The notes beneath the pieces are model-generated. The model did not search any database. It was not told where the DNA came from and worked only from the letters and a program-made list of their open reading frames with translations. Shown one piece after another: positions 2 to 18,659 of a DNA stretch of 22,903 nucleotides. Positions within the stretch are counted from its first letter, which is position 1; each line of letters opens with the position of its first letter. The stretch comes from Ktedonobacter sp. 13_1_20CM_4_53_11. GTDB taxonomy: Bacteria; Chloroflexota; Ktedonobacteria; Ktedonobacterales; Ktedonobacteraceae. Location of the stretch: assembly GCA_001919995.1 (NCBI GenBank), contig MNIY01000057.1, forward strand, positions 1 through 22,903, given 5' to 3'. The position numbers and the translations under genes were made by a program.

Positions 2-3000
2 TCGCAACTCCCGCTTGACACCGTCGTCTCCTACGTCACACAGATCGCCGAGGCCTTGCAATATGCACACGATCAGAAGGTGATCCATCGCGACATTAAG
101 CCGGAGAACATACTGCTTGGGCGCAACAACGAGGTCCTGTTGAGCGATTTTGGTATTGCCATCATGACTCAGAGTTCAGCCTCCCAGCATCCCCAGGATG
201 CGGCAGGATCCATTGCCTACATGGCTCCCGAGCAGATCCAGGCGCATCCGGGCCCAGCAAGCGATCAGTATGCTTTGGGCATTGTCATCTATGAATGGCT
301 GAGCGGAGATCGCCCTTTTCACGGGTCGTTTACAGAGATTGCCATCAAGCATGCGCTTACTCCTCCGCCATCTTTACGTGAGAAGGTTTCTACCATCCCA
401 CCTGCCGTTGAGCAAGTGGTATTGAAGGCGCTGGCTAAGAATCCAAAACAACGCTTTGAGCGGGTGCAGGCTTTTGCCGAAGCCCTGGAAGAAGCCAGTA
501 AGGAAGAAGCATCTGGGCGGACTCTCTTTGTGTCTGGCTCGGATATCCCTGGGCAACACCCAGCCGAAAGTGAACCTACAGCGGGCCAATGGAAAGCTCG
601 ACCCCACAACTTGCCTGCGCAACTCACCTCCCTGATTGGACGCGAAGAAGAGATCCAGGTATTATGTACACTCCTGCAACGACCAGAGATACGCCTCGTC
701 ACCCTCACAGGTACCGGTGGTGTCGGCAAAACACGCCTGGCCTTGCAGGTCGCAACTGACCTGCTCGATGACTTTGCCGGCGATATCTGCTTCGTCCCGC
801 TGGCTCCCGTCAGTGATCCCAACCTGGTCGTCCCCACTATCGTCCAGGCGCTCGGACTCGAAGTGAGCGGAGATCAACCACTGCTTGACCTCTTGAAAGT
901 ATCACTCCGAGACAAACGTCTGCTGCTGCTGCTCGACAACTTTGAGCAGGTGCTCGGGGCAGCGCCTGGCCTTTCGGAACTGCTGTCAGTCTGCCCCCAC
1001 CTCAAAATCCTGGTGACCAGTCGCGCTGTGCTGCACATCCGTGGTGAACACGAGTTTCTTGTACCACCACTGAGGTTACCCGACCTCACCCACCTTCCAG
1101 AGAGCGAAGTCCTCTCACAGTATGCGGCGGTAGCCCTTTTCTTGCAATGTGCGAAGGCAGCCAAGCCTGACTTCCAGATGACTCCCGCAAACATCCGTGC
1201 CGTCGCTGAAATCTGTGTTAGCCTGGATGGGCTACCTCTTGCTATTGAGTTGGCAGGTGCACGCGCCAAAGTCCTACCCCCTCAGGCCCTTCTGACGCGC
1301 TTAAGGCATCGATTGCAGGTATTGACGATCGGAGCACGGGATGTCCCTGCCCGGCAACAAACGCTCCGTAACACGCTTGCTTGGAGTTATGATCTGCTAG
1401 GTGTCAAGGAACAGCTACTTTTCAGGCGGCTCTCTGTCTTTGTTGGCGGCTGCACCCTGGGGGCCGTAGAGGCTATGTATAGTACTCTCAGTGATAGGCC
1501 CGCATACGTATTGGACGGGATAGCGTCACTCATTGACAAGAGCTTGCTGCGCCAAACGGAGCAGGAGGGGGAGGAGCCACGTCTGCTGATGTTGGAGACG
1601 ATTCGCGAGTATGGCCTGGAGGTCCTCACCACTAGTGGAGAGATGCAGAACGCGCGGCGGGCTCACGCTCTCTATTACCTGTCACTGGCGGAGGATGCGG
1701 AGACTGAGGTCGGGGGCCCACAGCAAGCTGTATGGTTGGACCGCTTAGAGCGGGAGCATGACAACCTGCGAGCAGCGTTGCAGTGGTCGTTAGGACAAAC
1801 TGGAGATGATGAGTCCGTGGAAAAAGAGCAGGATTTGGAGATTGCCTTGAGGTTGGGAGGAGCGTTGCGGAGTTTCTGGAGGGTCCATGGTCACATCACT
1901 GAGGGAAGGAGCTTCCTTGAGCGGGCGCTGGCGGCAAGTAAAGGAGCTGCGGCATTTGTGCGAGCAAAGGCACTCATTGCTGCTGCGAACCTGGCCTTCA
2001 TCCAGAGCGACTATGATAGCATGGAGATACTATGCAAGGAGAGCCTGGCGCTGTACCAGGAACTCGAAGACCTGCCAGGTATAGCGCACTCCGTCTATCT
2101 ATTGGCGAACGTGGCCTGGACAAGAGGCGACACAGCAACAGCGCGCTCCCTGTTGACGGAAGCTCAATCACTCGCCAGAGCGATCGACGACGAGGAGTAC
2201 GTCGCCTGGTCGCTGTTCGTCCAAGGACTGTTGGAGAGCAGTCAGGGTAACTACCCCAGGGCACGTACACTGTTCGAGGAGAGCCTGAAGATACACAGGC
2301 AGTTGCAGAATAAGAGAGGGATAGCTCATTCGCTCTCTCAACTGGCACAGGTGCTCTTTGTTTCCCAAAGCGATCAGGAGAGAGTACCCTCTCTGCTCGA
2401 GGAATGTCTCGCACTCTCCGAGGAGATAGGTTTCAAGGAGGGAGTTGCCGCATCGTCCTGGCTTTCGGGACAGGTAGCGCTTAGGCAGGGAGACCTTGTC
2501 AAAGCGCGCTCGCTAGCCGAGAAGGGTGTGGCACTCTACAGAGAAATGGGTCACCGGCACGGCATGGCTGAGTCCCTTCCTGCTTTAGGGAAGGTGCTCG
2601 CTGCCCAGGGCGACTATCCAACAGCACGCACGTTGTACGAGGAGGGCCTGGCAATCTCTGGAGAGTTGGGCGAAAAATGGGTGGTCGCTCAATGCCTGGT
2701 GGGATTGGGGGAAGTAGTTGCGGCCCAGCGACAGTTAGCCTGGGCGGCACAACTCTGGGGGGTAGCGGAGGCTCTACGCGACGCTATTGACGTGCCTTTA
2801 CCGCCTGTCGAGCGCACGAGTTATGACCGCTCGGTTGCCGCTACACGCGCCCACCTTGGGGAGGGGGCATTTGCCACGGCGTGGGCACAGGGACGGTCCA
2901 TGACGCCAGAGCAGGTCCTCGTCGCGCAGGGACGAAAACCTGGCCCGCCGCCGAAGACAATTATCCCGCCACCAACCTATCCTGATGGACTCTCGGCACG

Positions 3001-3175
3001 GGAAGTAGAGGTGCTGTGTCTGGTGGCGGCTGGCTTGACCGACGTCCAGATAGCCGAAAAGCTGATTCTCAGTCCTCGCACCGTGCATGCTCATACCAGC
3101 TCCATTTACAGCAAGCTCGACATTACTTCGCGCAGTGCGGCAACTCGCTACGCTATTGAGCACCACCTCGCCTGA
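2..3175 (+). CDS. Ser/Thr kinase - STAND ATPase - TPR - LuxR-type regulator (5' end outside window)
   Basis: Multidomain signalling regulator whose N-terminus lies outside the window; the frame is open from base 2. Numbering from the TTG at 56, the kinase part shows the catalytic loop HRDIKPEN (11-18), DFG (31-33) and APE (57-59), so the end of the catalytic domain is intact. A STAND/NB-ARC-like ATPase follows, with Walker A GTGGVGKT (219-226) and a Walker B ending in D294 (LLLLLDNF). About 400 residues of TPR-like helical repeats come next. The last 62 residues (from about 978) are a LuxR/GerE helix-turn-helix starting GLSAREVEVL. The likely role is a cytoplasmic sensor that phosphorylates targets, oligomerises through its ATPase and binds DNA; the signal is unknown. 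A kinase-less paralogue lies at 11038-13641. The domain calls are secure, but the integrated function is inferred. Confidence 0.93.
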   Translation, partial: SQLPLDTVVSYVTQIAEALQYAHDQKVIHRDIKPENILLGRNNEVLLSDFGIAIMTQSSASQHPQDAAGSIAYMAPEQIQAHPGPASDQYALGIVIYEWLSGDRPFHGSFTEIAIKHALTPPPSLREKVSTIPPAVEQVVLKALAKNPKQRFERVQAFAEALEEASKEEASGRTLFVSGSDIPGQHPAESEPTAGQWKARPHNLPAQLTSLIGREEEIQVLCTLLQRPEIRLVTLTGTGGVGKTRLALQVATDLLDDFAGDICFVPLAPVSDPNLVVPTIVQALGLEVSGDQPLLDLLKVSLRDKRLLLLLDNFEQVLGAAPGLSELLSVCPHLKILVTSRAVLHIRGEHEFLVPPLRLPDLTHLPESEVLSQYAAVALFLQCAKAAKPDFQMTPANIRAVAEICVSLDGLPLAIELAGARAKVLPPQALLTRLRHRLQVLTIGARDVPARQQTLRNTLAWSYDLLGVKEQLLFRRLSVFVGGCTLGAVEAMYSTLSDRPAYVLDGIASLIDKSLLRQTEQEGEEPRLLMLETIREYGLEVLTTSGEMQNARRAHALYYLSLAEDAETEVGGPQQAVWLDRLEREHDNLRAALQWSLGQTGDDESVEKEQDLEIALRLGGALRSFWRVHGHITEGRSFLERALAASKGAAAFVRAKALIAAANLAFIQSDYDSMEILCKESLALYQELEDLPGIAHSVYLLANVAWTRGDTATARSLLTEAQSLARAIDDEEYVAWSLFVQGLLESSQGNYPRARTLFEESLKIHRQLQNKRGIAHSLSQLAQVLFVSQSDQERVPSLLEECLALSEEIGFKEGVAASSWLSGQVALRQGDLVKARSLAEKGVALYREMGHRHGMAESLPALGKVLAAQGDYPTARTLYEEGLAISGELGEKWVVAQCLVGLGEVVAAQRQLAWAAQLWGVAEALRDAIDVPLPPVERTSYDRSVAATRAHLGEGAFATAWAQGRSMTPEQVLVAQGRKPGPPPKTIIPPPTYPDGLSAREVEVLCLVAAGLTDVQIAEKLILSPRTVHAHTSSIYSKLDITSRSAATRYAIEHHLA

Positions 3176-3991: not shown

Positions 3992-4041
3992 AAGCTGGCT
4001 GGACTGGCATCATTCCATGCCAGTCCAGCCAGCTTCTTTTT
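3992..4041 (+). terminator. Strong Rho-independent terminator
   Basis: A perfect 19-bp stem (3992-4010 with 4017-4035) closes a 6-nt loop and is followed by CTTTTT (4036-4041). It lies 47 bp after the stop codon of the DoxX-like gene and should isolate it from the E1 region downstream. Confidence 0.93.
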
Positions 4042-4127: not shown

Positions 4128-4160
4128 ATGCGAAAAACCACACATGCTCATCACAGCTAG
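4128..4160 (+). CDS. Possible 10-residue leader peptide with a very strong ribosome site
   Basis: AGGAGGAGGAG at 4108-4118 is followed nine bases later by an ATG (4128) opening a frame that encodes MRKTTHAHHS and stops with TAG at 4158-4160, inside the first bases of element E1. It has three His and two Thr codons. The ribosome site is striking for such a short frame, which is the only reason to list it. No attenuator hairpin pair was found, so translation and function are guesses. Confidence 0.25.
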   Translation: MRKTTHAHHS

Positions 4161-4248
4161 GTAATTCTGTTTAGTGAATGCTAGAGCAATGGAGAGATGG
4201 AATTACACATTTCTGTCGATGCATTCCTACTCTCATTAAGGTATATCT
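4156..4248 (+). promoter_or_regulatory. Element E1: three-block conserved regulatory element
   Basis: First of three copies in the window. Block 1 (4156-4173) reads GCTAGGTAATTCTGTTTAG-like; block 2 (4200-4221) begins GAATTACAC and ends TGTCGATG; block 3 (4239-4248) is AGGTATATCT. The gaps are 26 and 17 bp. GTAATTC in block 1 and GAATTAC in block 2 form an inverted pair. Block 3 contains a TATATC that resembles a -10 element. It ends 79 bp before the membrane protein gene at 4328. It is likely a promoter with upstream operator half-sites; the binding factors are unknown. Confidence 0.7.
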
Positions 4249-4327
4249 CTTGGTATGGTGAGCAGCATAGGTTCAAGTAGTAACGGAACTCCTGAGACAT
4301 ATATGCAAAGAAAGAGGGGAAATCCTT

Positions 4328-4939
4328 ATGCAACGGCCGTTTTCCCTGTCTGATCGCAACCACACCAATAACCTCCTGCAGGCCATCGTTTTGCTCCTGC
4401 TTGGAGTCGTCTTCCTTGCGATTGCATGGCTAGGCATGCTCAATACCTATTCCATGGGCGTCTTGCTCTTTGGTCTGGGAATGTTAGGAGTTGCCCCGCT
4501 CAATCCCAGGCGCTTTCTCCCGGCAGGTTGGTTGACGACAACTCTTGGGGTGGCAACCTTCCTCATGTTTCGACACTATATTCCTGATAGCCAGGTCCTT
4601 ACCGCCCATCTTCTTGCCATTGGAGTGGGGCTGCTCGGCATTGCATGGATAGCTCGTCACGGTCATATTGGCGCGGGAGCGCTGACACCAGGGGTCTTTG
4701 TTGTGGGGGTGGGGGTCACCGAGTACTTGCAAGCAGTACATCTCACTCCTTCTGCCCTGGTTCCTTTTGCGCTTTCCCTCTGGCTCCCCGGATCTGGCCT
4801 CTTTGTGCTTGGGCTGGTCTGCCTGGCGATGAATGGAAGAACATCCATCCATGCAAAGCGCCACGTGGCGAACCGTACAGAAACAAACATTCACGATGGG
4901 AGTAGCGTCGTACGTTCCACGAACGAGAACGGCAAGTGA
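4328..4939 (+). CDS. Multi-pass membrane protein of unknown function
   Basis: A 203-residue hydrophobic protein with about five or six membrane segments (roughly 17-38, 42-60, 66-82, 88-108, 113-133 and 140-166) and a hydrophilic tail of about 35 residues rich in His, Arg and Asn. I do not recognise the family. A purine-rich GAGGGGA at 4314-4320 supports the ATG at 4328. The gene lies just downstream of element E1. After it come a scrap of sigma-factor region 4 and then cydAB, so all could be on one transcript. That context suggests a role in membrane or respiratory stress, but this is inference only. Confidence 0.75.
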   Translation: MQRPFSLSDRNHTNNLLQAIVLLLLGVVFLAIAWLGMLNTYSMGVLLFGLGMLGVAPLNPRRFLPAGWLTTTLGVATFLMFRHYIPDSQVLTAHLLAIGVGLLGIAWIARHGHIGAGALTPGVFVVGVGVTEYLQAVHLTPSALVPFALSLWLPGSGLFVLGLVCLAMNGRTSIHAKRHVANRTETNIHDGSSVVRSTNENGK

Positions 4940-4960
4940 ATTAACCTGGCGACGCAAGGT

Positions 4961-5065
4961 ATGAAGATTAGCTCGAAAAAAGAACTGCGTATATCACGCG
5001 AACGTGTTCGACAGCTCGAAGTGGTAGCTCTGATGAAGATACGCCACCAGTATACATGTCAATAA
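4961..5065 (+). pseudogene. Remnant of sigma-70 region 4.2 (helix-turn-helix end)
   Basis: A 34-codon frame with the segment [11 protein letters not shown], the DNA-recognition helix of sigma-70 region 4.2. Codons from about 4979 to 5044 match the C-terminus of the sigma factor at 13912-14766 at 17 of 22 aligned residues, and the nucleotide match is also visible. Regions 1-3 are missing, so it cannot be a working sigma factor. It starts about 20 bp after the membrane gene's stop, and its own stop lies in the first unit of the 24-bp tandem repeat before cydA. It is most likely the relic of a third sigma gene; a small anti-sigma-like DNA-binding peptide is a remote alternative. Confidence 0.8.
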
Positions 5066-5105
5066 TCTCTTGTCTGTAAACGTCAATAATCTCTCGTCTG
5101 TAAAG
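5058..5105 (+). repeat. 24-bp tandem duplication immediately upstream of cydA
   Basis: Units 5058-5081 and 5082-5105 both start GTCAATAATCTCT and end GTCTGTAAA, with 22 of 24 positions identical. The second unit runs into the cydA ribosome site AAGGAG (5103-5108). It could be a duplicated regulator site or simple slippage. Confidence 0.8.
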
Positions 5106-5116
5106 GAGAGTTCTTC

Positions 5117-6472
5117 ATGTCTGATCTCTTAGCTGCGCGGGCTCAGATGGGCACCTCGCTCGCTTTCCATATCATCTTTGCTTCCCTGGGAATTGGACTG
5201 CCACTGCTTCTGTGTATTGCCGAAGGGCTTGCTCTCCGGTACAAAGATAGTGGCTGGATGACGCTCACCCGCCGTTGGACGAAAGCCTTTGCCCTGCTCT
5301 TCGCCATCGGCGCAGTCTCCGGCACAATACTCTCGTTTGAAATCGGCCTGCTCTGGCCGGCCTATACCAAGTTTTCCGGCTCGATCATCGGCCTACCGTT
5401 TGCCCTGGAGGGCTTTGCCTTCTTTTTAGAGGCCATCTTCCTCGGCCTCTACCTGTATGGATGGGAGCGCCTCTCGCCGCGTGCGCACTGGCTCTGTTCG
5501 TTTCCCCTCTGGATCAGTGGAGCGGCTTCGGCCTGGTTTATCGTCAGTGCGAACTCCTGGATGAATACGCCAGTCGGTTTCCAGATTACGCATGGACAGG
5601 TGACAGGTATCAATCCCTTACAGGCAATACTCAATCCGAGTACTCCGTATGAGACGACCCATATGCTCCTGGCAGCCTATGTGGCAACCGGCTTCGGCGT
5701 TGCCGCTATCTATGCCATCCAAATCCTGCGCGGCAAACGCGAACCGTACTACCGCAAAGGACTCATGCTGGCGATGGCGCTGGGCGCCATCGCCATCCCA
5801 TTCCAGATTTTCGATGGTGACTTGAGTGCCCGTTCGCTTGCGGATCTCCAGCCTGCCAAGTTAGCCGCGATGGAGGGGGTCTTCCATACGGAGAAAGGCG
5901 CGCCGGTCAAGATCGGTGGCATCGTTGATGATAAGACAGGGCAGGTCCTGTTTGCCATCGAAATCCCTGATGGATTGAGCATCCTGGCCAGAGGTGATCC
6001 ACATGCCACCATTGTAGGTCTCGATAAATACGCGCCTCAAGATCGACCTGACCCTTTCTTTGTGCATCCCTCGTTTGATGGCATGGTCGGCAGCGGTTTC
6101 TTTACCCTGCTCATCGGGGGCTTATTCTGGCTGCTCTACTTCAAGCGCAAACGGGTTGTTCCTGAGAATCGCCTGGTGCTGTGGGGGATCGTCCTGTCCG
6201 CTCCGCTCTCTTTTATCGCGATAGAACTTGGCTGGATCGTCACCGAACTGGGCCGCCAACCCTGGGTCATCTATAACATCCTGCGCACATCGGATGCGGT
6301 GACGACCGCGCCAGGACTGGGCATCAGCTTTGCGATTTTCTCCGGCATCTACGTGGTGCTGGCGATCACCCTGATCGTGCTTCTGCTGCGCCTGGCGCGT
6401 TCACCGCTGCCCAAGCAGGAGTGGCCTGTCCTCGTGAGTAGTAGTAGTGAAGAAAAGGGTGGCACGAAATGA
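5117..6472 (+). CDS. cydA: Cytochrome bd oxidase subunit I
   Basis: Subunit I of the quinol-oxidising cytochrome bd terminal oxidase, an integral membrane protein that reduces O2 to water and tolerates low oxygen and oxidative stress. The 451-residue length fits the short Q-loop type. The haem and proton-path residues expected from the E. coli enzyme are visible: H18, E98, E105, H182 and M323. The quinol-loop segment PAKLAAMEGVF (with K248 and E253) and the signature GRQPW (379-383) are also present. The ATG at 5117 has AAGGAG eight bases upstream. The stop codon overlaps the cydB start by four bases (ATGA), so the two are translationally coupled. No cydDC assembly genes are in the window. 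Confidence 0.97.
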   Translation: MSDLLAARAQMGTSLAFHIIFASLGIGLPLLLCIAEGLALRYKDSGWMTLTRRWTKAFALLFAIGAVSGTILSFEIGLLWPAYTKFSGSIIGLPFALEGFAFFLEAIFLGLYLYGWERLSPRAHWLCSFPLWISGAASAWFIVSANSWMNTPVGFQITHGQVTGINPLQAILNPSTPYETTHMLLAAYVATGFGVAAIYAIQILRGKREPYYRKGLMLAMALGAIAIPFQIFDGDLSARSLADLQPAKLAAMEGVFHTEKGAPVKIGGIVDDKTGQVLFAIEIPDGLSILARGDPHATIVGLDKYAPQDRPDPFFVHPSFDGMVGSGFFTLLIGGLFWLLYFKRKRVVPENRLVLWGIVLSAPLSFIAIELGWIVTELGRQPWVIYNILRTSDAVTTAPGLGISFAIFSGIYVVLAITLIVLLLRLARSPLPKQEWPVLVSSSSEEKGGTK

Positions 6473-7527
6473 CATTAACCTACACGATATTGATCATCCT
6501 CTGGCTTTCGCTGATCGTCTATGCTGTCCTTGGCGGAGCGGACTTTGGCGGGGGCATCTGGGACTTCTTCGCCTTTGGTCAAGAGGCACAACGTCAACGC
6601 CGTTTGATTGGGCAGGCTTTAGGGCCAGTCTGGGAGGCGAATCACGTCTGGCTGATCTTCCTGATCGTGGGACTCTTCACGGCCTTCCCCTTAGCCTTCT
6701 CAGTGCTTTCAATAGCGCTCTTTGTGCCGTTCACCCTGGCAGTGATCGGCATCGTGATGCGTGGAGCGGCCTTTATGTTTCGAGGCCAGGTTGATGATGC
6801 CACGACCTCGCGTCGGATCTGGGGCCGTGTGTTCAGTACCGCCAGCACCATCACCCCTTTCTTTTTCGGTGCCGCAGCCGCGGCAGTGGCCAGCGGCCAG
6901 GTTCACGTGGAGGCGGGTCGTGTTCAGACCGATCTCCTGGCCGGCTGGACAACGCCTTTCGCACTGACTATCGGCGCTTTAGCGCTCTCGCTGTGTGCCG
7001 TGCTCGCGGCCGTTAATCTGATAGTCGAGGCTCAGAACAGCAATGAGCCTGAACTCGTGGAGGCGTTTCGCCGCCGTGCCATGATCGCGGGAGCCATAAC
7101 GCTGGGACTGGATGCCATTGCCTTCATTCTGTCACCGTTCCAGGCGCCACTTTTATTGAACGGTGCGCTCGATCACGCGCTGCCCCTGATCATTGCTACA
7201 GCGCTGATCGGAGTGGGAGCTGCCACCTCGTTGCTACTGAGGCGCTACCGCCTGGCGCGTGTTCTGGCCTTCACCGTCACGGCCTTCATTTTTGCTTCCT
7301 GGGGGTTGTCGCAATTTCCCTACCTGGTCCCGGTTTCTGTGACCATAAGCAATGCTGCCAGTCCACCTTCCACACAGCTGGCGCTGCTCATTGGCACTCT
7401 TGTTGGTATGGCATTGCTCTTGCCCTCACTCTGGTTGCTTTTCCATGTCTTCAAGGGCAAGCATCCTGCACTGAACGGTCAGGAGAAAGCGGAGGAAACG
7501 AAAGAGCCAACATCCACACACCGCTAA
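6469..7527 (+). CDS. cydB: Cytochrome bd oxidase subunit II
   Basis: Second subunit of the bd-type quinol oxidase, 352 residues with about eight or nine membrane helices. The N-terminal signature GGADFGGGIWDFF (22-34, with D25) and GPVWEANHVW (52-61) are characteristic of CydB. The ATG overlaps the cydA stop by four bases. The C-terminal tail is hydrophilic and rich in Glu, Lys and Thr. A truncated MFS gene begins in another frame right at its end, so the 3' flank is a rearrangement scar, but cydB itself looks complete. Confidence 0.96.
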   Translation: MTLTYTILIILWLSLIVYAVLGGADFGGGIWDFFAFGQEAQRQRRLIGQALGPVWEANHVWLIFLIVGLFTAFPLAFSVLSIALFVPFTLAVIGIVMRGAAFMFRGQVDDATTSRRIWGRVFSTASTITPFFFGAAAAAVASGQVHVEAGRVQTDLLAGWTTPFALTIGALALSLCAVLAAVNLIVEAQNSNEPELVEAFRRRAMIAGAITLGLDAIAFILSPFQAPLLLNGALDHALPLIIATALIGVGAATSLLLRRYRLARVLAFTVTAFIFASWGLSQFPYLVPVSVTISNAASPPSTQLALLIGTLVGMALLLPSLWLLFHVFKGKHPALNGQEKAEETKEPTSTHR

Positions 7528-7876
7528 ACTTTTGCTGTGCGGTGTGTTTGCTTGTGGCATCGTAAGTCTAGGCGATGGAGCAGTGACGCCGATGGTGTCG
7601 TCCCTCCTCTCATTTGCCAGCCCACCAACCAGGCAAGGCGAAACGCTGGGTCTTGCACAAGGTGCCGCGGGGCTCGGACGAGTCATAGGTCCACTGGCCG
7701 CAGGAAGCCTCTTCGCGATTGGGGGTTCGGGCGCACCTTTCTTCTTTGGGAGTGCGCTCGTCGTGCTGGCAGCGTTGATCGCGTTCCCCACGCTTTCAAG
7801 CAAGCACGAGGTAACCCTTACGCATTCCACGCCTGAGGTTCAAACAATCTCTACAGCGCAAGATCGTTCCTCCTGA
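7523..7876 (+). pseudogene. C-terminal remnant of an MFS (TetA-like) transporter
   Basis: About 115 codons matching the last three or four helices of a drug/H+ antiporter-type MFS protein: a P-x-x-S-S-L-L-S-like segment followed by RQGETLGLAQGAAGLGRVIG, then two hydrophobic helices and a polar tail. A complete MFS protein has about 400 residues and 12 helices, so some 290 are absent. There is no ribosome site; the only start available is a TTG at 7532, five bases past the cydB stop. The frame is open back into the cydB tail, where it is merely a shadow. It is best read as a fragment left by a deletion or insertion next to cydB. Confidence 0.8.
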
Positions 7877-7938
7877 AGAAAGGCCATATCTGCTCTTCTC
7901 TTTCTAAAATCGCTTAGAAGGAAGATTCCCAAAGCAAC

Positions 7939-7975
7939 GTTGGTATTCTTACCAACTACAGAGGGCCAGTTGGTA
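7939..7975. other. Two mutually exclusive hairpins at the ftsH stop codon
   Basis: GTTGGTA (7939-7945) can pair with TACCAAC (7950-7956), closing a 4-nt loop. The same TACCAACT arm (7950-7957) can instead pair with AGTTGGTA (7968-7975), closing a 10-nt loop. The ftsH stop codon lies inside. There is no T-run on either side, so this is at best a weak terminator or an mRNA 3'-end stabiliser. Confidence 0.4.
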
Positions 7976-9962
7976 CAGCGCTTGTATCCTCCAAAATCGC
8001 GCGCAACTGTTTAGCATCAAGCGTTTCATGCAAGCGCAGTGAACGAGCAATGCCATTGAGTGTCTCACGGTGCGAAGTCAACAGGCTGATAGCACGATCA
8101 TAGGCCCGCTTCACGATACGATTAACTTCTTCGTCAATGATGTTGGCCGTCTGCTCACTATACTCGCGAGAGCCGCTTGAGAGGACGGTTCCTGCGAATG
8201 GATCTTCGCGTTCGCTAAAGGAGATCGTTCCGAGACGCTCGCTCATGCCCCAACGCGTCACCATCTGGCGCGCAATGGCCGTGACACGCTGCAAGTCGTT
8301 TTCCGCGCCTGTCGTGATGTGTCCAATTGCTACTTGCTCAGCGGCGCGTCCACCCAGCGCTGTCACCAGTTGCGCCTCCAGGTACTCTTTCGAGTAGTTA
8401 TAGCGATCATCTATCGGCGTATACTGTGTCACGCCAAGTGCCTGACCACGAGGCACAATCGTCACTTTGGTCACCGGATCAACATAATCCTGTAGCATAC
8501 CCGTCAGCGCATGACCGCTTTCATGGTAGGCAATGACATTCAGATCAGCCTCACTCAACACCAAAGGACGCTCTGCACCGATGAGAATCCTGTCCAGAGC
8601 AGCATCAAAGCAGTTTTGTGTCACCGCAATCAGGTTGCGGCGTGCTGCCAGGAGAGCCGCTTCGTTGACGAGGTTGGCGATGTCCGCGCCAACCATACCA
8701 GGAGTGGCACGAGCGATCGTAATCAAGTCGACGTTTGTTGCTAGAGGCACATTGCGAGTATGAATCTTGAGAATGGCCAGGCGACCATTCCAGTCGGGAC
8801 GCTCGACTGTCACTTGCCGATCGAAGCGCCCAGGACGCAGGAGCGCCTTGTCCAGCCCATCGGGCCGATTGGTAGCAGCGATGACGACAACAGACTGGCG
8901 TGTATCAAAGCCATCCATCTCAACCAGTAACTGGTTCAAGGTTTGCTCACGCTCGTCGTTGCTATTGATGCTGAAACCCCGCTGGCGCCCGACGGCATCG
9001 ATCTCATCGATGAAGATGATGCTGGGGGATGCCTTCTTGGCTTGATCGAAGAGGTCACGCACGCGACTTGCACCGACACCGACCAGCACTTCGACGAACG
9101 CTGAACCGCTCATCGAGAAGAAGGGGACTCTCGCCTCACCTGCGACAGCGCGTGCCAGCAAGGTCTTACCGGTTCCGGGAGGGCCTACCAGTAGCACGCC
9201 ACGGGGAATCTTTCCACCCAGGCGTTGAAACTTCTCCGGTGTCTTGAGAAATTCAACGACCTCAACGAGATCGTATTTGGCCTCATCAACCCCAGCCACA
9301 TCAGTAAACGTTGTGCCTGGCCTATCACCCAGCTCTACCCTGGCCTTACTCTTCCCAAAGCTGGAGATGTCCTGCTGGGTCTTTGTGGCCCGACGAGCAA
9401 AGAAGAAGATGACGCCGATCACTACAATCAAGGGGAGAAAGGTGAGCACAATGTTCAGCAAAAGATTTTGACCAGCGGCGGGCTTCGCCTGGTACTGTAC
9501 GTGATACGTGTTCAGCAAGGCGATGAGGTTGGGGTCGCCGTAGGGGAGCTGTGTCAGGTGATACTGCTTCGTAAGCACAGGGGTACCATTGGCATCCGTT
9601 AAAGAGAGAGCGTTCTTGAAGTCACCGGTGATGTCCTGCCCCTGGAAAGTAGCATCCTTGACATTGCCTGCTTGAACTTGCTTGTAGAACACACTGTAAG
9701 GTACCTCTCCAACACTTTGTTCATTGACACTCGAGCCTGGAGAGAAGAATTGGATGAAGGACCAGGAGATCAACACTATACCGACTAGAAGGAGAGAGAG
9801 CTTCAATAATTGCCTGCCATTATTTCGTGGGCTACCGCCATTGCTGTCGTTGCTCCCATCGCCTGAGCGCTGTCGTCCTGTCGGGCTCTGATCATCTGTG
9901 TTGCGCTGGTACATACGTACAACCTGAGTATCCATAGGTTGAACCGCTTTCTGGGTGATCAA
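7956..9962 (-). CDS. ftsH: ATP-dependent zinc metalloprotease FtsH
   Basis: Membrane-anchored AAA+ protease that degrades misfolded membrane proteins and selected regulators. Length from the TTG at 9962 is 668 residues. A polar, Asn/Ser/Gly-rich leader is followed by helix 1 (52-73), an extracytoplasmic domain and helix 2 (167-190). The AAA module shows Walker A GPPGTGKT (260-267), Walker B IIFIDEID (315-322) and the second region of homology with arginine fingers (363-384). The zinc site is HESGH (480-484), with D556 as the probable third ligand; Ser replaces the commoner Ala in HEAGH. The TTG has GGTGA just upstream; the ATG at 9935 is an alternative start with a weaker ribosome site. It stands alone on the minus strand, behind a structured leader. 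Confidence 0.96.
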
Positions 9963-9996
9963 CGATCACCTGGATGAGTATACTAGTATGATTGTT

Positions 9997-10100
9997 GAAG
10001 CTCCTGGATGCAGAGGCAGAATCACCTCTTTGACTGCGTTGTCAAAGTGAGAACCAGAGGACTGGTTTGAGCGATTTTGCGGCCTGAAACCAGGAGCTTC
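9997..10100. ncRNA. Candidate structured RNA or regulatory region upstream of ftsH
   Basis: An 11-bp perfect inverted repeat (GAAGCTCCTGG at 9997-10007, CCAGGAGCTTC at 10090-10100) encloses three smaller hairpins: AGAGG/CCTCT (10012-10016, 10025-10029), CTTTGAC/GTCAAAG (10028-10034, 10041-10047; the first two share two bases) and AACCAG/CTGGTT (10052-10057, 10062-10067). The right closing arm also fits a competing hairpin, CCTG-AAAC-CAGG (10083-10094). The whole resembles a multibranched RNA of about 104 nt. It could be the ftsH 5' leader (minus strand) or a plus-strand transcript. It matches no riboswitch class I recognise; a small MITE-like insertion with 11-bp ends is the alternative. Confidence 0.4.
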
Positions 10101-10114
10101 TATAGGAGAACGCT

Positions 10115-10222
10115 GTGTCGTATCGTTCTTTCACATATGTAGATTCGCCGCAGGTTACAGCATTTGCCAACCCTCTGCCCAGCCCCATTTTCACACGTCG
10201 TTTGATAGGTAATTTCGTCTAG
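10115..10222 (+). CDS. Possible 35-residue peptide between the hairpin region and E2
   Basis: A GTG at 10115 lies six bases after AGGAG (10104-10108) and opens a 35-codon frame ending with TAG at 10220-10222, inside block 1 of element E2. The peptide (starting MSYRSFTYVDSP) has no recognisable domain. The good ribosome spacing is the only support; a chance frame is quite possible. Confidence 0.2.
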   Translation: MSYRSFTYVDSPQVTAFANPLPSPIFTRRLIGNFV

Positions 10223-10296
10223 AAGGTTTTCTGCGCAACAAGATGATGAATTACACATTTTTGTCGATGTACTCCTGCGCTCTATGAGGTATATCT
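10204..10296 (+). promoter_or_regulatory. Element E2: three-block conserved regulatory element
   Basis: Second copy. Block 1 (10204-10221) reads GATAGGTAATTTCGTCTAG-like, block 2 (10248-10269) begins GAATTACAC and ends TGTCGATG, and block 3 (10287-10296) is AGGTATATCT. The spacers of 26 and 17 bp match E1 exactly in length while differing in sequence. The upstream half-site has one change, GTAATTT. It ends 80-101 bp before the two possible starts of the ECF-like sigma gene. Confidence 0.7.
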
Positions 10297-10376
10297 AGTG
10301 TGGTGGCGCGTAACATACAAGTATCCTCGAGCTGCTTCGTGTACGAGCCTCCAATCGCTTAGAGGAAGCTAAATAT

Positions 10377-10970
10377 TTGGAAAGAGATGAGATACAGATG
10401 CCAACAATATCGCATGTACGAGATAGCATCAATATTCCCATGGATGTGCAGGAGTACCAAACATTTGTTGAGGAGAACCTTAGCCTGATCTATCGCTATA
10501 TGTATAGCAAGGTCCGGAACAGAGAGGATGCTGAGGATCTGACGTCGCAAATCTTTCTCAAAGTAGTAAGCAAAATTGATCTCAGTCATAGCCGGCAAAG
10601 GGTGCAACAATGGCTGTTTCTCATTGCACGCACAACTATCGCGGACTACTGGCGAGATCATTATCGTCACCCCTCGAGTTCACTGGATGAGTTGTTAGAA
10701 ACCGGCTGGGAGGTCACGATGCGGGAAGAGACGATAGTGACAAACAGCTACGCCGCCGACCGCGTCCAACGTATTCTTCGCGCATTGCCTCAGCGATATC
10801 GAGAGGTCTTGCATTGCCGTTTTCTCCTCAACCTCTCAATAAGAGAGACTGCTTCAAGGATGGGAGTGACAGAGGCAAACGTCAAAGTCTTACAGTTTCG
10901 TGCTTTGAAACGTGCTGCTGATCTTGAACAGGTCGTCATAGACGAACCATATTGTAACTGCCTTCCGTAG
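10377..10970 (+). CDS. ECF-like sigma-70 family RNA polymerase sigma factor
   Basis: A two-domain sigma factor of 197 residues from the TTG at 10377 (AGAGGAAG eight bases upstream), or 190 from the ATG at 10398. Region 2 is seen at about 27-95: YQTFVEENLSLIYRYMY, then REDAEDLTSQIFLKV and WLFLIARTTIADYWRDH. After a linker, region 4 occupies about 128-185, with LPQRYREVLHCRFLLNLSIRE and a helix-turn-helix ending VTEANVKVLQFRALKRA. It has no region 3 and so fits the ECF class. Element E2 lies directly upstream, so control by E2, and perhaps autoregulation, is plausible. The STAND-LuxR gene starts 67 bp downstream; no anti-sigma gene is adjacent. Confidence 0.92.
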   Translation: MERDEIQMPTISHVRDSINIPMDVQEYQTFVEENLSLIYRYMYSKVRNREDAEDLTSQIFLKVVSKIDLSHSRQRVQQWLFLIARTTIADYWRDHYRHPSSSLDELLETGWEVTMREETIVTNSYAADRVQRILRALPQRYREVLHCRFLLNLSIRETASRMGVTEANVKVLQFRALKRAADLEQVVIDEPYCNCLP

Positions 10971-10971
10971 T

Positions 10972-11009
10972 AGTTCTTGGACTCAATTGTGAATCAGTTC
11001 CCGGACTCA
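10972..11009 (+). repeat. Direct repeat AGTTCyyGGACTCA between the sigma and STAND genes
   Basis: Two 14-bp copies, AGTTCTTGGACTCA (10972-10985) and AGTTCCCGGACTCA (10996-11009), 24 bp apart start to start, 12 of 14 identical. They lie in the 67-bp gap just ahead of the regulator at 11038 and could be paired regulator sites. Confidence 0.6.
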
Positions 11010-11037
11010 CTTTTCCGGTTGCTTCCAAGTTGAACAT

Positions 11038-13641
11038 ATGTTAGATGCAGTCAACGTTCAGTTCCACAACTTGCCTTCGCAACTCACACCGCTGATCGGA
11101 CGCGAGCAAGAGAGACAGGCAGTTTGCACACTCCTCCGACGACCAGGAGTGCGCCTCGTCACGCTCACGGGTACGGGCGGAGTTGGCAAAACACGCCTGA
11201 GTTTGCAAGTCGCGACCGACTTGCTGGATGACTTTTGCGACGGCGTCTGCTTCATCCAACTGGCACCCGTGAGCGACCCTGAACTGGTCGTCGCCACGAT
11301 CACGCGCACCCTTGGCATCAAGGAGGTGGGAGAGCGATCACTCCTCGATCTTCTCACATCCTATTTACAAGACAAGCACCTGCTGTTACTGCCAGACAAC
11401 TTTGAGCAGGTTCTGCCGGCAGCACCGCAGCTTTCAAACCTGCTGGCTGCTTGTCCTCACGTCAAGGTCCTGGTGACCAGCCGTGCTGTGTTACACGTTC
11501 ATGGAGAACACGAGTATCCTGTCCCACCACTGGCGCTCCCCGACCTCTCTCATCTTCCGGAGAGCGAAACCATCTCACAGTATGCATCGGTCGCCCTTTT
11601 CCTGGAGCGAGCAAGGGCTGCCAGGCCCAATTTTACGATGACAGCCGTCAATAGCCGCACGATCGCGGAGATTTGTGTCCGCCTGGATGGATTGCCTCTC
11701 GCCATTGAACTTGCAGGGGCGCGCATCAACCTGCTTCCCCCGCAGGCGCTGCTGGCCCGGTTGGAGCATCGCCTGGACGTGTTGACGAGTGGGCCCCAGG
11801 ATGTTCCTGCGCGGCAGCAGACCCTGCGCAACATGCTCGCCTGGAGTTATGATTTGCTGGATGCCGCAGAGCAGCGTCTCTTCCGGCGCCTCTCCATTTT
11901 TGTTGGCGGCTGCACATTGGAAGCTGTGGAGGGTCTCTATCAAGCTCTCGGTGAGATGCCGGCATACGTGCTGGATGGGGTAGCTTCCCTGATCGATAAG
12001 AGCTTGCTACGACAAACGGATCAGGAGGGGGAGGAACCCCGACTCGTGATGCTGGAGACGATCCGTGAGTACGGTCTGGAGTGCTTGACTGCGACTGGCG
12101 AGATGGAGATCACCCGCCAGGCTCATGCTGCTCACTACCTGTCGTTGGCGGAGGAGGCAGAGCTAGAACTGGGAGGGCCACAGCAAGCATCGCGGTTGGA
12201 GCAGTTGGAGCGGGAGCATGACAACCTGCGAGCGGCGTTGCAGTGGGTGATAGAACAGGCCGGCAAAGACGATTCCGGGCAACGTGCTGTTAATAGGGGA
12301 GAGATGGCCCTGAGGTTGGCGGGAGCGCTGCGCAGTTTCTGGGTAGCACATGGTCATATCAGTGAAGGGCGGCATTTCCTGGAGCGTGCATTGGCTGTAA
12401 GCGAGGGAGTCGAGGCAGCAGTACAGGCGAAGGCGCTCTTCGTGACGGCGTACCTGGCCTTCGTCCAAAGCGACCATGAGCGCACAGAGGAACTGGGCAA
12501 GCAGAGCCTGGCGCTGTATCGAGATCTCGAAGACCAACCAGGCATAGCCTTCGCGCTCTCGTTGCTGGGAAGTGTAGCCTGGACGAAGGGCAAGATGGTT
12601 GCAGCTCGGACTCTGACGGAGGAAGCCCTGGCAGTTGCCAGGCAGGTAGACGATATGGATCGCATTGCCTACTCCCTCTTTGTGTTAGGACTGCTCTCCA
12701 GCAGCCTGGGTGAGTACACCCGGGCCTGTGCCCTCTACCAGGAGAGCGTGGCGGTTCACCGGGCGGCGGGGAACAAGCGGGGTCTTGCTCATACCCTCTC
12801 CCAATTCGCCCAGGTGCTCTTTGTCTCCCAGGTGGATCAGGCGCAGGTGATCCCTCTGCTCGAGGAATGTCTCACGCTCTCTGAGGATGTGGGCTTCAAG
12901 GAGGGTATTGCGGCGTATGATTGCGTCTCGGGTCAACTGGCTCTCAGTCAGGGAGACCTGATCACGGCGCGCTCGCTGGCTGAGAAGAGCGTGGAGCTCT
13001 ACAGGGAAATAGGACACCGGCATGGTACGGCCAAGTCGCTCGCCGTTTTAGGGAAGGTACTCGCCACCGGGGGCGACTACACAGCAGCCTCCACGTACTA
13101 CGAGCAGAGCCTGGCAATCTCCGCTGAGTTGGGCGAAAAATGGGTAGCCGCCGTGTACCTGGTAGAGTTGGGGGAAGTCGTCGCGGCATTGCGACAATTA
13201 GCCTGGGCGGCACAATTGTGGGGAGCGTCAGAAGCTGTACGTGATGCTCTCGGCATCCCCATTTTTCTCGTTGAACGTGCTGATTATGAGCGCGCGGTCT
13301 CAGCAGCGCGTGCTCACCTGGGAGAGCGGGCGTTCGCTACCGCCTGGGCCCATGGACGCTCTCTGACACCGGAGCAGGCGCTCGCCGCCAGGGGGCAAAA
13401 ACCGGCTCCAACCTCGACGAAGATCGTGACTTCCCCCACGACCTATCCAGCTGGATTGACGGCACGCGAGGTAGAGGTCCTGCGCCTGCTGGCAAGCGGC
13501 ATGACTGACATCCAGATAGCTACCAAGCTCATTCTCAGTCCCCGCACCGTCCATGCCCACATCAGTTCCATCTATAGCAAGCTTGGCATTACTTCGCGCA
13601 GTGCAGCAACCCGCTATGCCATCGAGCACAACCTCGCCTGA
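11038..13641 (+). CDS. STAND ATPase - TPR - LuxR-type regulator (kinase-less paralogue)
   Basis: An 867-residue regulator closely similar to the C-terminal three quarters of the kinase-fused protein at the left edge, but starting directly at the ATPase. Walker A GTGGVGKT is at 45-52. The Walker B aspartate is D120, preceded by Pro (LLLLPDNF) where the paralogue has Leu. TPR-like repeats fill roughly 400-700, and a LuxR/GerE helix-turn-helix forms the last 62 residues, nearly identical to that of the paralogue. The ATG at 11038 has no clear Shine-Dalgarno site. It follows the ECF-like sigma gene by 67 bp and may share its transcript from E2. It presumably acts as an ATP-gated transcription activator; ligand and targets are unknown. 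Confidence 0.92.
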   Translation: MLDAVNVQFHNLPSQLTPLIGREQERQAVCTLLRRPGVRLVTLTGTGGVGKTRLSLQVATDLLDDFCDGVCFIQLAPVSDPELVVATITRTLGIKEVGERSLLDLLTSYLQDKHLLLLPDNFEQVLPAAPQLSNLLAACPHVKVLVTSRAVLHVHGEHEYPVPPLALPDLSHLPESETISQYASVALFLERARAARPNFTMTAVNSRTIAEICVRLDGLPLAIELAGARINLLPPQALLARLEHRLDVLTSGPQDVPARQQTLRNMLAWSYDLLDAAEQRLFRRLSIFVGGCTLEAVEGLYQALGEMPAYVLDGVASLIDKSLLRQTDQEGEEPRLVMLETIREYGLECLTATGEMEITRQAHAAHYLSLAEEAELELGGPQQASRLEQLEREHDNLRAALQWVIEQAGKDDSGQRAVNRGEMALRLAGALRSFWVAHGHISEGRHFLERALAVSEGVEAAVQAKALFVTAYLAFVQSDHERTEELGKQSLALYRDLEDQPGIAFALSLLGSVAWTKGKMVAARTLTEEALAVARQVDDMDRIAYSLFVLGLLSSSLGEYTRACALYQESVAVHRAAGNKRGLAHTLSQFAQVLFVSQVDQAQVIPLLEECLTLSEDVGFKEGIAAYDCVSGQLALSQGDLITARSLAEKSVELYREIGHRHGTAKSLAVLGKVLATGGDYTAASTYYEQSLAISAELGEKWVAAVYLVELGEVVAALRQLAWAAQLWGASEAVRDALGIPIFLVERADYERAVSAARAHLGERAFATAWAHGRSLTPEQALAARGQKPAPTSTKIVTSPTTYPAGLTAREVEVLRLLASGMTDIQIATKLILSPRTVHAHISSIYSKLGITSRSAATRYAIEHNLA

Positions 13642-13700
13642 AAGCCACTCTCACACCCTACGAATTCGACGATCTGTTTCTCCCGACCACAACAACGGTA

Positions 13701-13795
13701 GCTAGGTAATTCTGTCTAGAGGATTCCCAGGGCAATGAAGGGAAAGAATTACACGTTTCTGTCGATGTATGCCGGCCTATCAGTAAGGTATATCT
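13701..13795 (+). promoter_or_regulatory. Element E3: three-block conserved regulatory element
   Basis: Third copy. Block 1 (13701-13718) reads GCTAGGTAATTCTGTCTAG-like, block 2 (13746-13767) begins GAATTACAC and ends TGTCGATG, and block 3 (13786-13795) is AGGTATATCT. The spacers are 27 and 18 bp, one more each than in E1 and E2. GTAATTC and GAATTAC again form an inverted pair. It precedes the SigA-like gene by 68-116 bp, depending on which start is used. The rest of the 270-bp gap (13642-13911) holds nothing recognisable. Confidence 0.7.
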
Positions 13796-13911: not shown

Positions 13912-14766
13912 ATGGTATTATTCAAAGACTCACAAGATACGCGCACCATCACTGGTCGGCAGGATACGGAATCTAAAGATAGCTTGAATAGCTACCTGTG
14001 TGATGTTCGTAGATTTAACCTCCTCACTTATGCTGAGGAAACCGATCTCGCGCGACAAGCCGGTGTCGGCAATGAACTGGCGCGTCACAAGCTGATCGAG
14101 TCAAATTTGCGCCTTGTCATCGCTATTGCGCGTCACTACAACAATTCAGGTGTGCCTCTTGTAGACCTCATCCAGGAAGGTAACCTGGGGCTGATACGTG
14201 CCGCCGAGAAATTTGACTATCAGCGTGGCTACCATTTCGGAACGTATGCGACCTGGTGGATCCGCCAGGCAGTAAGCCGCGCTGTTGAAGATCAGTCACG
14301 TCTGATTCATCTCCCTGAGCATGTGGCGACACGCCTGCGCAAGGTCCGACGCATCTCGGCGCAACTCTCGCAAGAGAGCGGGCAGGATCCCGTGCCGGAG
14401 CAGATAGCTGGGGCAAGCAATATGGATCTGGACGAAGTTAATTATCTGCTTGGCCTCGTCGAACAGCCTGTTTCTCTTGACACGCCCATTGATGATGAGG
14501 CCAATTTCTCACTCGTTGACACGCTTGATGATAGTGCAGCCCTGACTGAAACTGCCTCGCACCATCTCCTTGATGAAGAACTGCATCAAGCGCTCGCCTT
14601 GCTTAATCCACGTGAACGCATGGTCATCACCCTGCGCTACGGTATTGGCGATGGCCGCTGCCGTACCTTGCTCGAAATCGGGAAAGAACTGGGTATCTCA
14701 CGTGAGCGTGTTCGCCAACTCGAGGTGAGATCTTTGAAGAAGATGCGCGGATGCGTCGCCAAGTAG
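13912..14766 (+). CDS. RpoD/SigA-like group 2 sigma factor
   Basis: A sigma-70 factor of 284 residues from the ATG at 13912 (CAGGGA close upstream), or 300 from a TTG at 13864. Region 1.2 ([21 protein letters not shown]) is followed by region 2 with [18 protein letters not shown] and the -10-binding [16 protein letters not shown]. Region 3 starts near [13 protein letters not shown], and region 4 ends with [18 protein letters not shown]. Region 1.1 is absent and the length is short for the housekeeping factor, so it is more likely an alternative group 2 sigma. Element E3 lies upstream; a Rieske gene follows after 66 bp and may be co-transcribed. A degenerate copy of its C-terminus lies before cydA. 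Confidence 0.93.
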
Positions 14767-14832: not shown

Positions 14833-15531
14833 ATGAGTATTACTACACCGCCGATAAAACCACAGCTCACACCACAACAATATGAAATGTTGCATGGTGG
14901 AGGGGCTGAAGCTGCTGAAATTGCGAAACAGCGATTGTCACGCAGGCGTTTCCTTCGTCGATCTCTGTTTGCCGTCTGGGGACTATCTGCAACCGCCGGT
15001 GTGGCTGGTGCGCTCAACATGCTGTATCCAAACCTGACCGGTCAGTTTGGCTCTCTATTGACAGTTGGCAAAAAAGCAGATTTTCTGGCTGCCAGGCCTT
15101 CTGATTTCAAGATCGATCAAGCTGGCATGTTCTATCGCCAACCGGCTAAAGCCTATGTCGTCCATCTCGCCCAAGACACAACGTTCTCATTGCAAGGGAC
15201 AACGCTTGGGGATCAGCTGGCCTCGGAGACAGTCGTTAAAGATAGCGATGGCTCGTACTGGATTGCCTTGTTTCAACGATGTGTCCATCTGGGTTGTACC
15301 GTCCCGTTTCGCGATGACTGTGTGAGTTTCAAATGCCCCTGTCACGGCTCTCATTATAATGTGACTGGTGAATATCTGGATGGCCCAGCCCCAAGGAGCC
15401 TGGATCGCTTCGCCCTCTCCTTCAACGGAGAAGATGTGGTGATTGACACGGGAACACTCAACAATAAAGTGCCGCATCCTGATGCCACGACGCGCTTGAT
15501 TCCAGTGCCAACCGTACAATGTAGTGCATAA
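14833..15531 (+). CDS. Rieske [2Fe-2S] protein, Tat-exported
   Basis: A 232-residue membrane-anchored Rieske iron-sulphur protein resembling the QcrA subunit of menaquinol-cytochrome c reductase. The N-terminus has a twin-arginine-like RRRFLRR (37-43) followed by a hydrophobic segment of about 18 residues, typical of Tat-dependent Rieske anchors. The cluster motifs are CVHLGC (150-155) and CPCHGS (168-173), giving C150, H152, C168 and H171 as cluster ligands and C155 and C170 as the usual disulphide. No cytochrome b partner is nearby, so its complex is unknown. It sits between the SigA-like sigma factor and a peroxiredoxin on the same strand. The ATG at 14833 has only a weak upstream GTGGG. 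Confidence 0.93.
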   Translation: MSITTPPIKPQLTPQQYEMLHGGGAEAAEIAKQRLSRRRFLRRSLFAVWGLSATAGVAGALNMLYPNLTGQFGSLLTVGKKADFLAARPSDFKIDQAGMFYRQPAKAYVVHLAQDTTFSLQGTTLGDQLASETVVKDSDGSYWIALFQRCVHLGCTVPFRDDCVSFKCPCHGSHYNVTGEYLDGPAPRSLDRFALSFNGEDVVIDTGTLNNKVPHPDATTRLIPVPTVQCSA

Positions 15532-15641
15532 CATCATAAATACACTTGATCATTCCAAAGAGAAGTAAGGCAAGCTCGACAAGAAGCAAGAACGGTTCTA
15601 TTTGTTCTCACAAACATTCATTTTCAAGAGGAGGAGACGCT

Positions 15642-18560: not shown

Positions 18561-18659
18561 GGCACAAACAAAGGTCATTGACCTGAAGATGGAGGAGCTG
18601 TCCACAGTTCCCCCACCACCAGTTTTTGACGACGGACACGGGCGTCGTTTCAGTGCAGT

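What the first reader, a model, noticed from the sequence alone, without database searches (positions are those of the whole stretch)
4156..13795. Three copies of a novel spaced regulatory element (E1, E2, E3)
E1 (4156-4248), E2 (10204-10296) and E3 (13701-13795) share three blocks: TAGGTAATT..GT.TAG, then GAATTACAC..TTT.TGTCGATG, then AGGTATATCT. Gaps between blocks are 26/26/27 and 17/17/18 bp, while the gap sequences have diverged. That pattern points to selection on protein contacts rather than recent duplication. GTAATTC and GAATTAC form an inverted pair about 39 bp apart, near four helical turns. TTCTGTC recurs directly in blocks 1 and 2. TATATC in block 3 looks like a -10 box. No standard TTGACA box is seen at the expected distance, so a non-housekeeping sigma or an activator is likely.
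Basis: partly seen in the sequence, partly recalled or inferred. Interest (0 to 1): 0.82.

Follow-up and report, generated by a model that had tools for sequence, protein, structure and literature searches.

The report
Shared promoter of a respiration/stress regulon
Three matching stretches of DNA look like one activator-controlled promoter, reused in front of a bd-oxidase operon and two sigma-factor genes in what is probably an uncultured Ktedonobacteraceae bacterium; it is a new but fairly ordinary bacterial gene switch, perhaps worked by the MalT-like regulators encoded beside it.

Summary
E1, E2 and E3 share three blocks at near-fixed spacing; block 2 never appears in 100 shuffles. One detail is off: the first gap is 25/25/26 bp, not 26/26/27. 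G002, a genus relative of the nearest held genome, supplies five further copies, giving eight distinct elements. All eight lie outside the ORFs listed, point the same way as the next gene and end 41-122 bp before its start. The genes are cydAB-linked, ECF-sigma/STAND-LuxR, SigA-like-sigma/Rieske, Bcp peroxiredoxin and a PAP2/haloperoxidase-like enzyme. Orthologous blocks keep 140/147 positions, spacers 91/128. Only 2 of 47 class genomes gave a match. In the listed rows for 29 family genomes, the same two alone hold close relatives (over 73% identity) of the DNA-binding domain of regulator B. Best reading: an activator-dependent promoter. Block 3 is the -10, block 2 overlaps the -35 region, block 1 is a distal site, and the STAND-LuxR proteins are the likely binders. 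Promoter: strongly supported. Identity of the activator: inferred. It works like MalT-type regulons, but the DNA motif differs. New member of a known kind.

The parts
4158..4174 (+). E1 block 1, putative distal activator site (about -96 to -80 if TATATC is the -10)
4200..4221 (+). E1 block 2, putative proximal activator site overlapping the -35 region
4239..4248 (+). E1 block 3, putative -10 (AGGTATATCT)
10206..10222 (+). E2 block 1
10248..10269 (+). E2 block 2
10287..10296 (+). E2 block 3, putative -10
13703..13719 (+). E3 block 1
13746..13767 (+). E3 block 2
13786..13795 (+). E3 block 3, putative -10
3992..4035 (+). terminator-like stem-loop (19 perfect pairs, then CTTTTTG) between the DoxX gene and E1, so E1 probably heads a new transcription unit
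   Evidence: the scan as a whole finds no more terminator-like sites than shuffles (10 vs mean 8.1), but this one has by far the longest stem listed
4328..4939 (+). first gene after E1: 203-aa membrane-type protein (by eye), no Pfam family
4979..5050 (+). remnant of sigma region 4 (19 of 24 residues identical to the intact G002 sigma at the same place)
5117..6472 (+). CydA, cytochrome bd oxidase subunit I
   Evidence: PF01654, 3.1e-144
6469..7527 (+). CydB, cytochrome bd oxidase subunit II
   Evidence: PF02322
10401..10970 (+). ECF-type sigma factor, first gene after E2
   Evidence: Sigma70_r2, r4_2; the ATG start is chosen here by its Shine-Dalgarno-like sequence, the ORF tool gives TTG 10377
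11038..13641 (+). STAND-LuxR regulator B (NB-ARC, TPR, GerE HTH), second gene after E2; proposed activator
13912..14766 (+). SigA-like sigma factor (regions 1.2, 2, 3, 4), first gene after E3; ATG start chosen here, the ORF tool gives TTG 13864
14833..15531 (+). Rieske protein, downstream in the E3 unit
15546..16142 (+). Bcp/AhpC-type peroxiredoxin; its G002 homologue has its own copy of the element
56..3175 (+). STAND-LuxR regulator A (protein kinase, NB-ARC, TPR, GerE HTH), cut by the window start; HTH 83% identical to that of B

Best explanation
E1, E2 and E3 are copies of one activator-dependent promoter that co-regulates a small respiration and oxidative-stress regulon. Block 3 (TATATC) is the -10. 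Block 2 ends where a -35 would be and is the proximal activator site. Block 1, about 46 bp further up, is a second site. The activator is most likely the clustered STAND-LuxR proteins (B, itself in the E2 operon, and A), which would oligomerise on a signal plus ATP, bind both sites and recruit RNA polymerase. This would also drive their own synthesis and that of two sigma factors (positive feedback plus a sigma cascade). SHOWN by sequence: block conservation, fixed spacing, position and orientation before genes, shared distribution with the A/B HTH. INFERRED: that block 3 is used as a -10, that an activator binds blocks 1 and 2, that A/B are that activator, operon membership, and the direction of regulation.
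For: Eight distinct full elements, 3 in the window (repeated in G001) and 5 in G002, with block starts 42-43 and 39-40 bp apart. All eight lie outside the ORFs listed and 41-122 bp before a co-directional start. Orthologous blocks keep 140/147 positions and spacers 91/128, Fisher p 4e-8. A long terminator-like hairpin precedes E1. The element model matches in 2 of 47 class genomes. A and B share the recognition helix SPRT[VI]HAH[IT]SSIYSKL. The same-genus genome G003 (84% complete) shows no element, no E1 membrane protein and no close B, best 54%. Blocks 1 and 2 share a direct repeat TA-N5-TTCTGTC-N-A.
Against: No transcription or binding data. The co-distribution rests on two incomplete genomes of one genus plus the window, and other genes of the cluster may have the same distribution. 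G002's copy of A was not found. Orthologue E3 alone shows no significant block/spacer contrast (49/49 vs 41/44, p 0.10). The direct repeat is only borderline (p 0.05) and its 46-47 bp spacing is not a whole number of helical turns. A G002 regulator at another place also has TIHAH, in a different helix (SLHTIHAHLRTIYSKL). One weak ninth copy (L090) is followed on its strand only by an 84-aa ORF that mostly overlaps an opposite-strand ORF.
Confidence: 0.5

Rival explanations
1. The promoter is recognised by one of the sigma factors it drives (SigA-like or ECF), i.e. sigma autoregulation: block 2's end (TGTCGATG) serves as -35 and block 3 as -10. Block 1 is then an accessory site.
For: Elements stand before sigma genes at E2 and E3 and in the G002 E1 operon, which still holds an intact sigma. 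Gap 2 is 17-18 bp.
Against: The invariant part of block 3 is TATAT, 20-21 bp from the end of block 2, too far for a usual -35/-10 pair. Sigma contacts would not account for a 22-bp block 2 plus a 17-bp block 1. Relatives of both sigmas occur in genomes without the element: ECF homologues at 54-70% identity, 28 loci scanned outside G001/G002, and SigA-like homologues in 29 of 29 family genomes.
Confidence: 0.2
2. An activator encoded elsewhere in the genome (not A or B) binds blocks 1 and 2; the promoter reading stands but the binder is unknown.
For: Nothing in the data ties A/B to the DNA physically. The regulon genes (bd oxidase, peroxiredoxin, Rieske) suit many redox regulators.
Against: Among the 19 window ORFs scanned against Pfam, A and B are the only DNA-binding regulators other than sigma factors, and their HTH subgroup has the element's distribution.
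Confidence: 0.25
3. The blocks belong to a structured RNA leader (riboswitch-like), with the real promoter further upstream.
For: GTAATTC and GAATTAC could pair: 98.2% of cells form a standard pair in that helix, against 18-55% when the partner is slid by 1-3 columns, and one sequence (G002 PAP2 copy) has a change on both sides that keeps a pair. The structure was taken from these sequences, which favours it in the slid control.
Against: 174 of 500 shuffles reach the same covariation; 5 of 7 pairs never vary. No Rfam match in the window. Spacing is near-fixed while spacer sequence drifts, the element ends only 41 bp before bcp in G002, and conservation drops above block 1 (0.34 mean pairwise identity).
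Confidence: 0.04
4. The repeats are parts of a mobile or dispersed repeat family without regulatory role.
For: Copies are paralogous, with some likeness beyond the blocks.
Against: Full copies found number 3 in G001 and 5 in G002 (incomplete genomes), all directed at genes, and block conservation exceeds spacer conservation. No terminal repeat stands out in the alignment, though this was not tested on its own.
Confidence: 0.01

Closest known systems
MalT-dependent promoters (E. coli/Klebsiella mal regulon; Actinoplanes MalT region, PMC7567727, passages seen)
   Same: A STAND-LuxR protein with TPR-like sensor and a C-terminal DNA-binding domain; multi-site promoters; proximal site overlapping the -35 region; several transcription units under one regulator, in Actinoplanes a motif overlapping the -35 at 17 starts.
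   Different: MalT motif GGGGA(T/G)GAGG, or TCATCC-N5-GGATGA in Actinoplanes, is not the motif here. Sites here are 46-47 bp apart. Target genes are respiratory/redox, not maltose-linked.
Class II activator-dependent bacterial promoters in general (recalled)
   Same: Activator box centred near -42, poor or absent -35, recognisable -10.
   Different: A second conserved box near -88 at near-fixed distance in every copy; binder unknown.
Streptomyces SARP-LAL regulators (PMC5930380, search listing and start of abstract only)
   Same: Large ATP-binding LuxR-family-like regulators that bind promoters; heptameric direct repeats are named in the title.
   Different: There, as I recall, a SARP domain makes the DNA contact; searches show no such domain in A or B.
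ECF sigma autoregulated promoters (recalled)
   Same: Promoter in front of its own sigma gene, reused at other targets.
   Different: Long upstream blocks and a TATA-type -10 do not fit a two-box ECF promoter.

Membership tests
Bacterial activator-dependent promoter | Element lies between genes, just upstream of and co-directional with a coding sequence | tested here: met
   8 of 8 distinct full elements; 41-122 bp between block 3 and the start codon (my count)
Bacterial activator-dependent promoter | -10-like hexamer at constant place, no -35 hexamer at 16-18 bp | tested here: met
   TATAT invariant in 8 of 8; no TTGACA-type call at E1-E3 (the G002 copies were not scanned)
Bacterial activator-dependent promoter | Transcription starts just downstream and depends on a DNA-binding activator | not testable with these tools
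   needs 5'-end mapping and binding assays
MalT-type (STAND-LuxR) regulon | Regulator with NTPase (NB-ARC/NOD), TPR-like repeats and C-terminal GerE HTH encoded nearby | tested here: met
   A and B
MalT-type (STAND-LuxR) regulon | MalT box sequence in the promoters | tested here: not met
   Block consensus lacks GGGGA(T/G)GAGG and TCATCC-N5-GGATGA as given in PMC7567727; compared by eye
MalT-type (STAND-LuxR) regulon | The STAND protein binds the element | not testable with these tools
   only indirect: shared distribution and distinctive recognition helix
Sigma-70 consensus promoter | TTGACA-N16-18-TATAAT | tested here: not met
   one search lists none at E1-E3
Structured cis-regulatory RNA | Covarying helices or a match to a known RNA family | tested here: not met
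   no Rfam hit; covariation of the GTAATTC/GAATTAC helix reached by 174 of 500 shuffles

The most novel reading that the evidence does not exclude
A bacterial STAND (NLR-like) regulator pair, one of them fused to a protein kinase domain, reads two direct-repeat sites about 46 bp apart and sits at the head of a self-amplifying circuit. It switches on itself, an ECF sigma and a SigA-like sigma, together with bd oxidase, Rieske, peroxiredoxin and a haloperoxidase-like enzyme: an oxygen/redox regulon run by a MalT-like switch, evolved within one Ktedonobacteraceae genus.
Probability: 0.35. Interest if true: 0.6.

Novelty: new member of a known kind. Interest (0 to 1): 0.42.

Why it matters
Relatives of these STAND-LuxR proteins are numerous in the family: 0 to 22 matches at E <= 1e-60 per genome in 29 genomes, with at most 32 candidates scored in each. 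The literature listings seen here named no operator for any Ktedonobacter one. This element offers a concrete operator-regulator pair to test, and hints that NLR-like switches may control respiration and oxidant defence in these Chloroflexota. The element is otherwise an ordinary kind of bacterial promoter, found so far in one genus only.

Tried and rejected
Ancestral form of the element upstream of homologues in other genera: PSSM scans of 30 ECF-homologue loci (L039-L068) and of 43 further loci (L094-L136) found it only in G001 and G002. Block-2 pattern matches in 101 relatives: 32 in all, 8 of them full elements; the other 24 (2-3 mismatches) lack blocks 1 and 3 in place. The reversed-pattern control gave 9 matches. 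Below the eight full elements and L090, the sequence model listed 15 weaker hits in the family (E 0.001 to 0.5). I looked at five of the 15 by eye (L071-L073, L075, L092) and one more place (G024:C10); they look like chance; the other nine were not inspected. The eight elements (three of the window, five of G002) built the model, so the G002 hits with it are by construction; they were found first by pattern. G001:C257 (L090, E 1.7e-7) looks like a decayed or diverged copy and is not counted among the eight.

RNA-leader idea: hairpin covariation and folding of the E2/E3 leaders (z 0.82, 0.16, -1.04, -1.24) gave no support. The ECF leader is 93% identical between window and G002, above third codon positions (84%); I have no explanation and draw nothing from it.

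Plasmid records: no match for the E3 stretch. Viral contigs: one pattern match; the sequence around it, read by eye, shows neither block 1 nor block 3. Flagellar, SigB-type and Rex/FNR-like readings of the blocks were considered from memory and dropped for lack of fit; none was tested by a tool.

Limits: the 47 distinct HTH sequences compared come from 20 stretches I picked, 30 loci returned, and the window's A and B; they are not all family members, and the row list was capped. G001, G002 and G003 are incomplete (76%, 87% and 84%), so element counts are lower bounds and absences are soft. The window's own genome is not held. No structure prediction or protein-database search was run.
Full report
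WHAT IS THERE. Three blocks recur in E1, E2 and E3 exactly where reported. In 100 dinucleotide-preserving shuffles of the window, block 2 at up to 3 mismatches never appeared, while it has three perfect matches here. Starts of blocks 1 and 2 are 42, 42 and 43 bp apart; starts of blocks 2 and 3 are 39, 39 and 40 bp apart.

SETTING. The window encodes, in order: a kinase/NB-ARC/TPR/GerE protein (STAND-LuxR A, cut at the window edge); a DoxX/DUF417 protein; a long terminator-like hairpin (3992-4035); E1; a 203-aa membrane-type protein (by eye) without Pfam family; a sigma region-4 remnant; CydA; CydB; an MFS-type fragment; an FtsH on the other strand; E2; an ECF-type sigma; an NB-ARC/TPR/GerE protein (STAND-LuxR B); E3; a SigA-like sigma; a Rieske protein; and a peroxiredoxin; other genes follow. 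None of the three elements overlaps an ORF of 80 aa or more.

RELATIVES. The window's own assembly is not held. The nearest genome G001 has three block-2 matches, which are the counterparts of E1, E2 and E3 and are identical to them over the stretch printed; contigs of MAG CF_110 of the named collection give the same places. Searching 101 relatives for block 2 gave 32 matches in 21 genomes, and the reversed-pattern control 9; only in G001 and G002 are blocks 1 and 3 also in place. G002 has five such elements. One of its contigs has the length and match position of CATPCK010000443.1, Ktedonobacteraceae MAG S106_Bin_5. The five stand before the membrane-protein/sigma/cydA operon, before a Bcp peroxiredoxin, before the ECF sigma, before the SigA-like sigma/Rieske pair, and before a PAP2 protein that I read, from recalled knowledge of the family, as vanadium-haloperoxidase-like. 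The third genome of the genus, G003, has none. A sequence-only model of the eight distinct elements gave, in 29 family genomes, the same eight places, one weak copy in G001 (E 1.7e-7) and 15 hits between E 0.001 and 0.5; in the class, matches at E <= 0.001 in 2 of 47 genomes (stricter filters).

PROMOTER GEOMETRY. All eight elements point at the next gene; from the end of block 3 to the start codon are 79, 104 and 116 bp in the window and 109, 41, 103, 116 and 122 bp in G002 (my count). If TATATC is the -10, block 2 spans about -54 to -33 and block 1 about -96 to -80. The invariant core of block 3 is TATAT; the GG before it varies. No sigma-70 consensus promoter is called at E1-E3. A box overlapping the -35 region next to a plain -10 is what an activator-dependent promoter looks like.

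SELECTION. Between window and G002 orthologues the blocks keep 44/49 (E1), 47/49 (E2) and 49/49 (E3) positions; the spacers 21/42, 29/42 and 41/44. Pooled: 140/147 against 91/128, Fisher p 4e-8; E3 alone is not significant (p 0.10). Over all eight, mean pairwise identity is 0.90, 0.90 and 0.93 in the blocks, 0.47 and 0.54 in the spacers, 0.55 in the 25 columns after block 3 and 0.34 above block 1.

INTERNAL SYMMETRY. The inverted GTAATTC/GAATTAC pair is present (98.2% of cells pair, far above slid controls), but its covariation is reached by 174 of 500 shuffles. The best match between the blocks is a direct repeat, TA-N5-TTCTGTC-N-A, 46-47 bp apart, at shuffle p 0.05; neither block is a palindrome beyond shuffles. 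I treat the direct repeat as a hint only.

WHO BINDS. A and B have nearly the same HTH (83% identity), with recognition helix SPRTVHAHTSSIYSKL / SPRTVHAHISSIYSKL; the G002 copy of B has SPRTIHAHISSIYSKL. Among 47 distinct family HTH sequences read (a chosen sample), 4 carry SPRT[VI]HAH and all 4 are A/B proteins; one other G002 protein has TIHAH in a different helix and one G005 protein TVHSH. In the listed rows for 29 family genomes the only HTHs above 73% identity to that of B are those of G001 and G002. The element has the same distribution. G003 also lacks the E1 membrane protein and close relatives of B and of the ECF sigma (best 54% and 62-64%); its cydAB and Rieske genes were not looked for. 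This linkage supports A/B but cannot single them out.

MODEL. An activator of the STAND-LuxR type, made from the E2 operon, binds blocks 1 and 2 and recruits polymerase to the block-3 -10 at each unit. This gives positive feedback on the activator and on two sigma genes, and co-expression of bd oxidase, Rieske, peroxiredoxin and a haloperoxidase-like enzyme. Shown: sequence, spacing, position, conservation, distribution. Inferred: operons, transcription start, binding, binder, sign of regulation, signal.

AGAINST KNOWN SYSTEMS. MalT is the best-studied STAND activator (recalled); multimerisation allows cooperative binding to MalT boxes (PMC4381067, passages; PMC10427625, passages). In Actinoplanes its motif overlaps the -35 region of 17 starts, and the 5' end of the E. 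coli box lies at -34.5 to -35.5 (PMC7567727, passages). The present element works like that but does not carry that motif, so I do not file it as a MalT regulon. The listings of the literature searches (12 of 160, 5 of 5, 4 of 4, 4 of 5 and 12 of 525 papers shown) named no paper describing this element or an operator of Ktedonobacter STAND-LuxR proteins; that is a statement about those listings only.

VERDICT. A real, selected promoter family, found so far in one genus, with a plausible but untested activator. New member of a known kind; interest moderate.

Noticed in passing
window 4979-5050: Remnant of a sigma factor's region 4 between the membrane-protein gene and cydA; the G002 relative keeps an intact 368-aa sigma gene at this place (L037:3445-4551).
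   Followed up: partly
window 5058-5104: Two tandem copies of a 24-bp unit (GTCAATAATCTCTCGTCTGTAAAC) directly before the cydA start.
   Followed up: no
window 18512-18564 and 21259-21311: Another repeated stretch (75% alike); its core occurs at up to 3 mismatches in 9 of 29 family genomes, often several times and in identical copies in G009, so it looks like a dispersed mobile-type repeat.
   Followed up: partly
window 10297-10400: The ECF-sigma leader is 93% identical to G002, more than third codon positions of the gene (84%) and the upstream spacer (60%); no stable fold found. Unexplained.
   Followed up: partly
L090 1501-1582 (G001:C257:2731-2812): A weak ninth copy of the element (E 1.7e-7), apparently decayed; on its strand only an 84-aa ORF (1656-1910) follows, mostly overlapping an opposite-strand ORF that looks ferritin-like by eye.
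   Followed up: partly
window 3399-3434: 18-bp tandem duplication at the very start of the DoxX ORF.
   Followed up: no
window 22033-22709, minus strand: Isochorismatase-family gene appears split over two overlapping ORFs (22033-22437 and 22353-22709), suggesting a frameshift or an assembly error.
   Followed up: no
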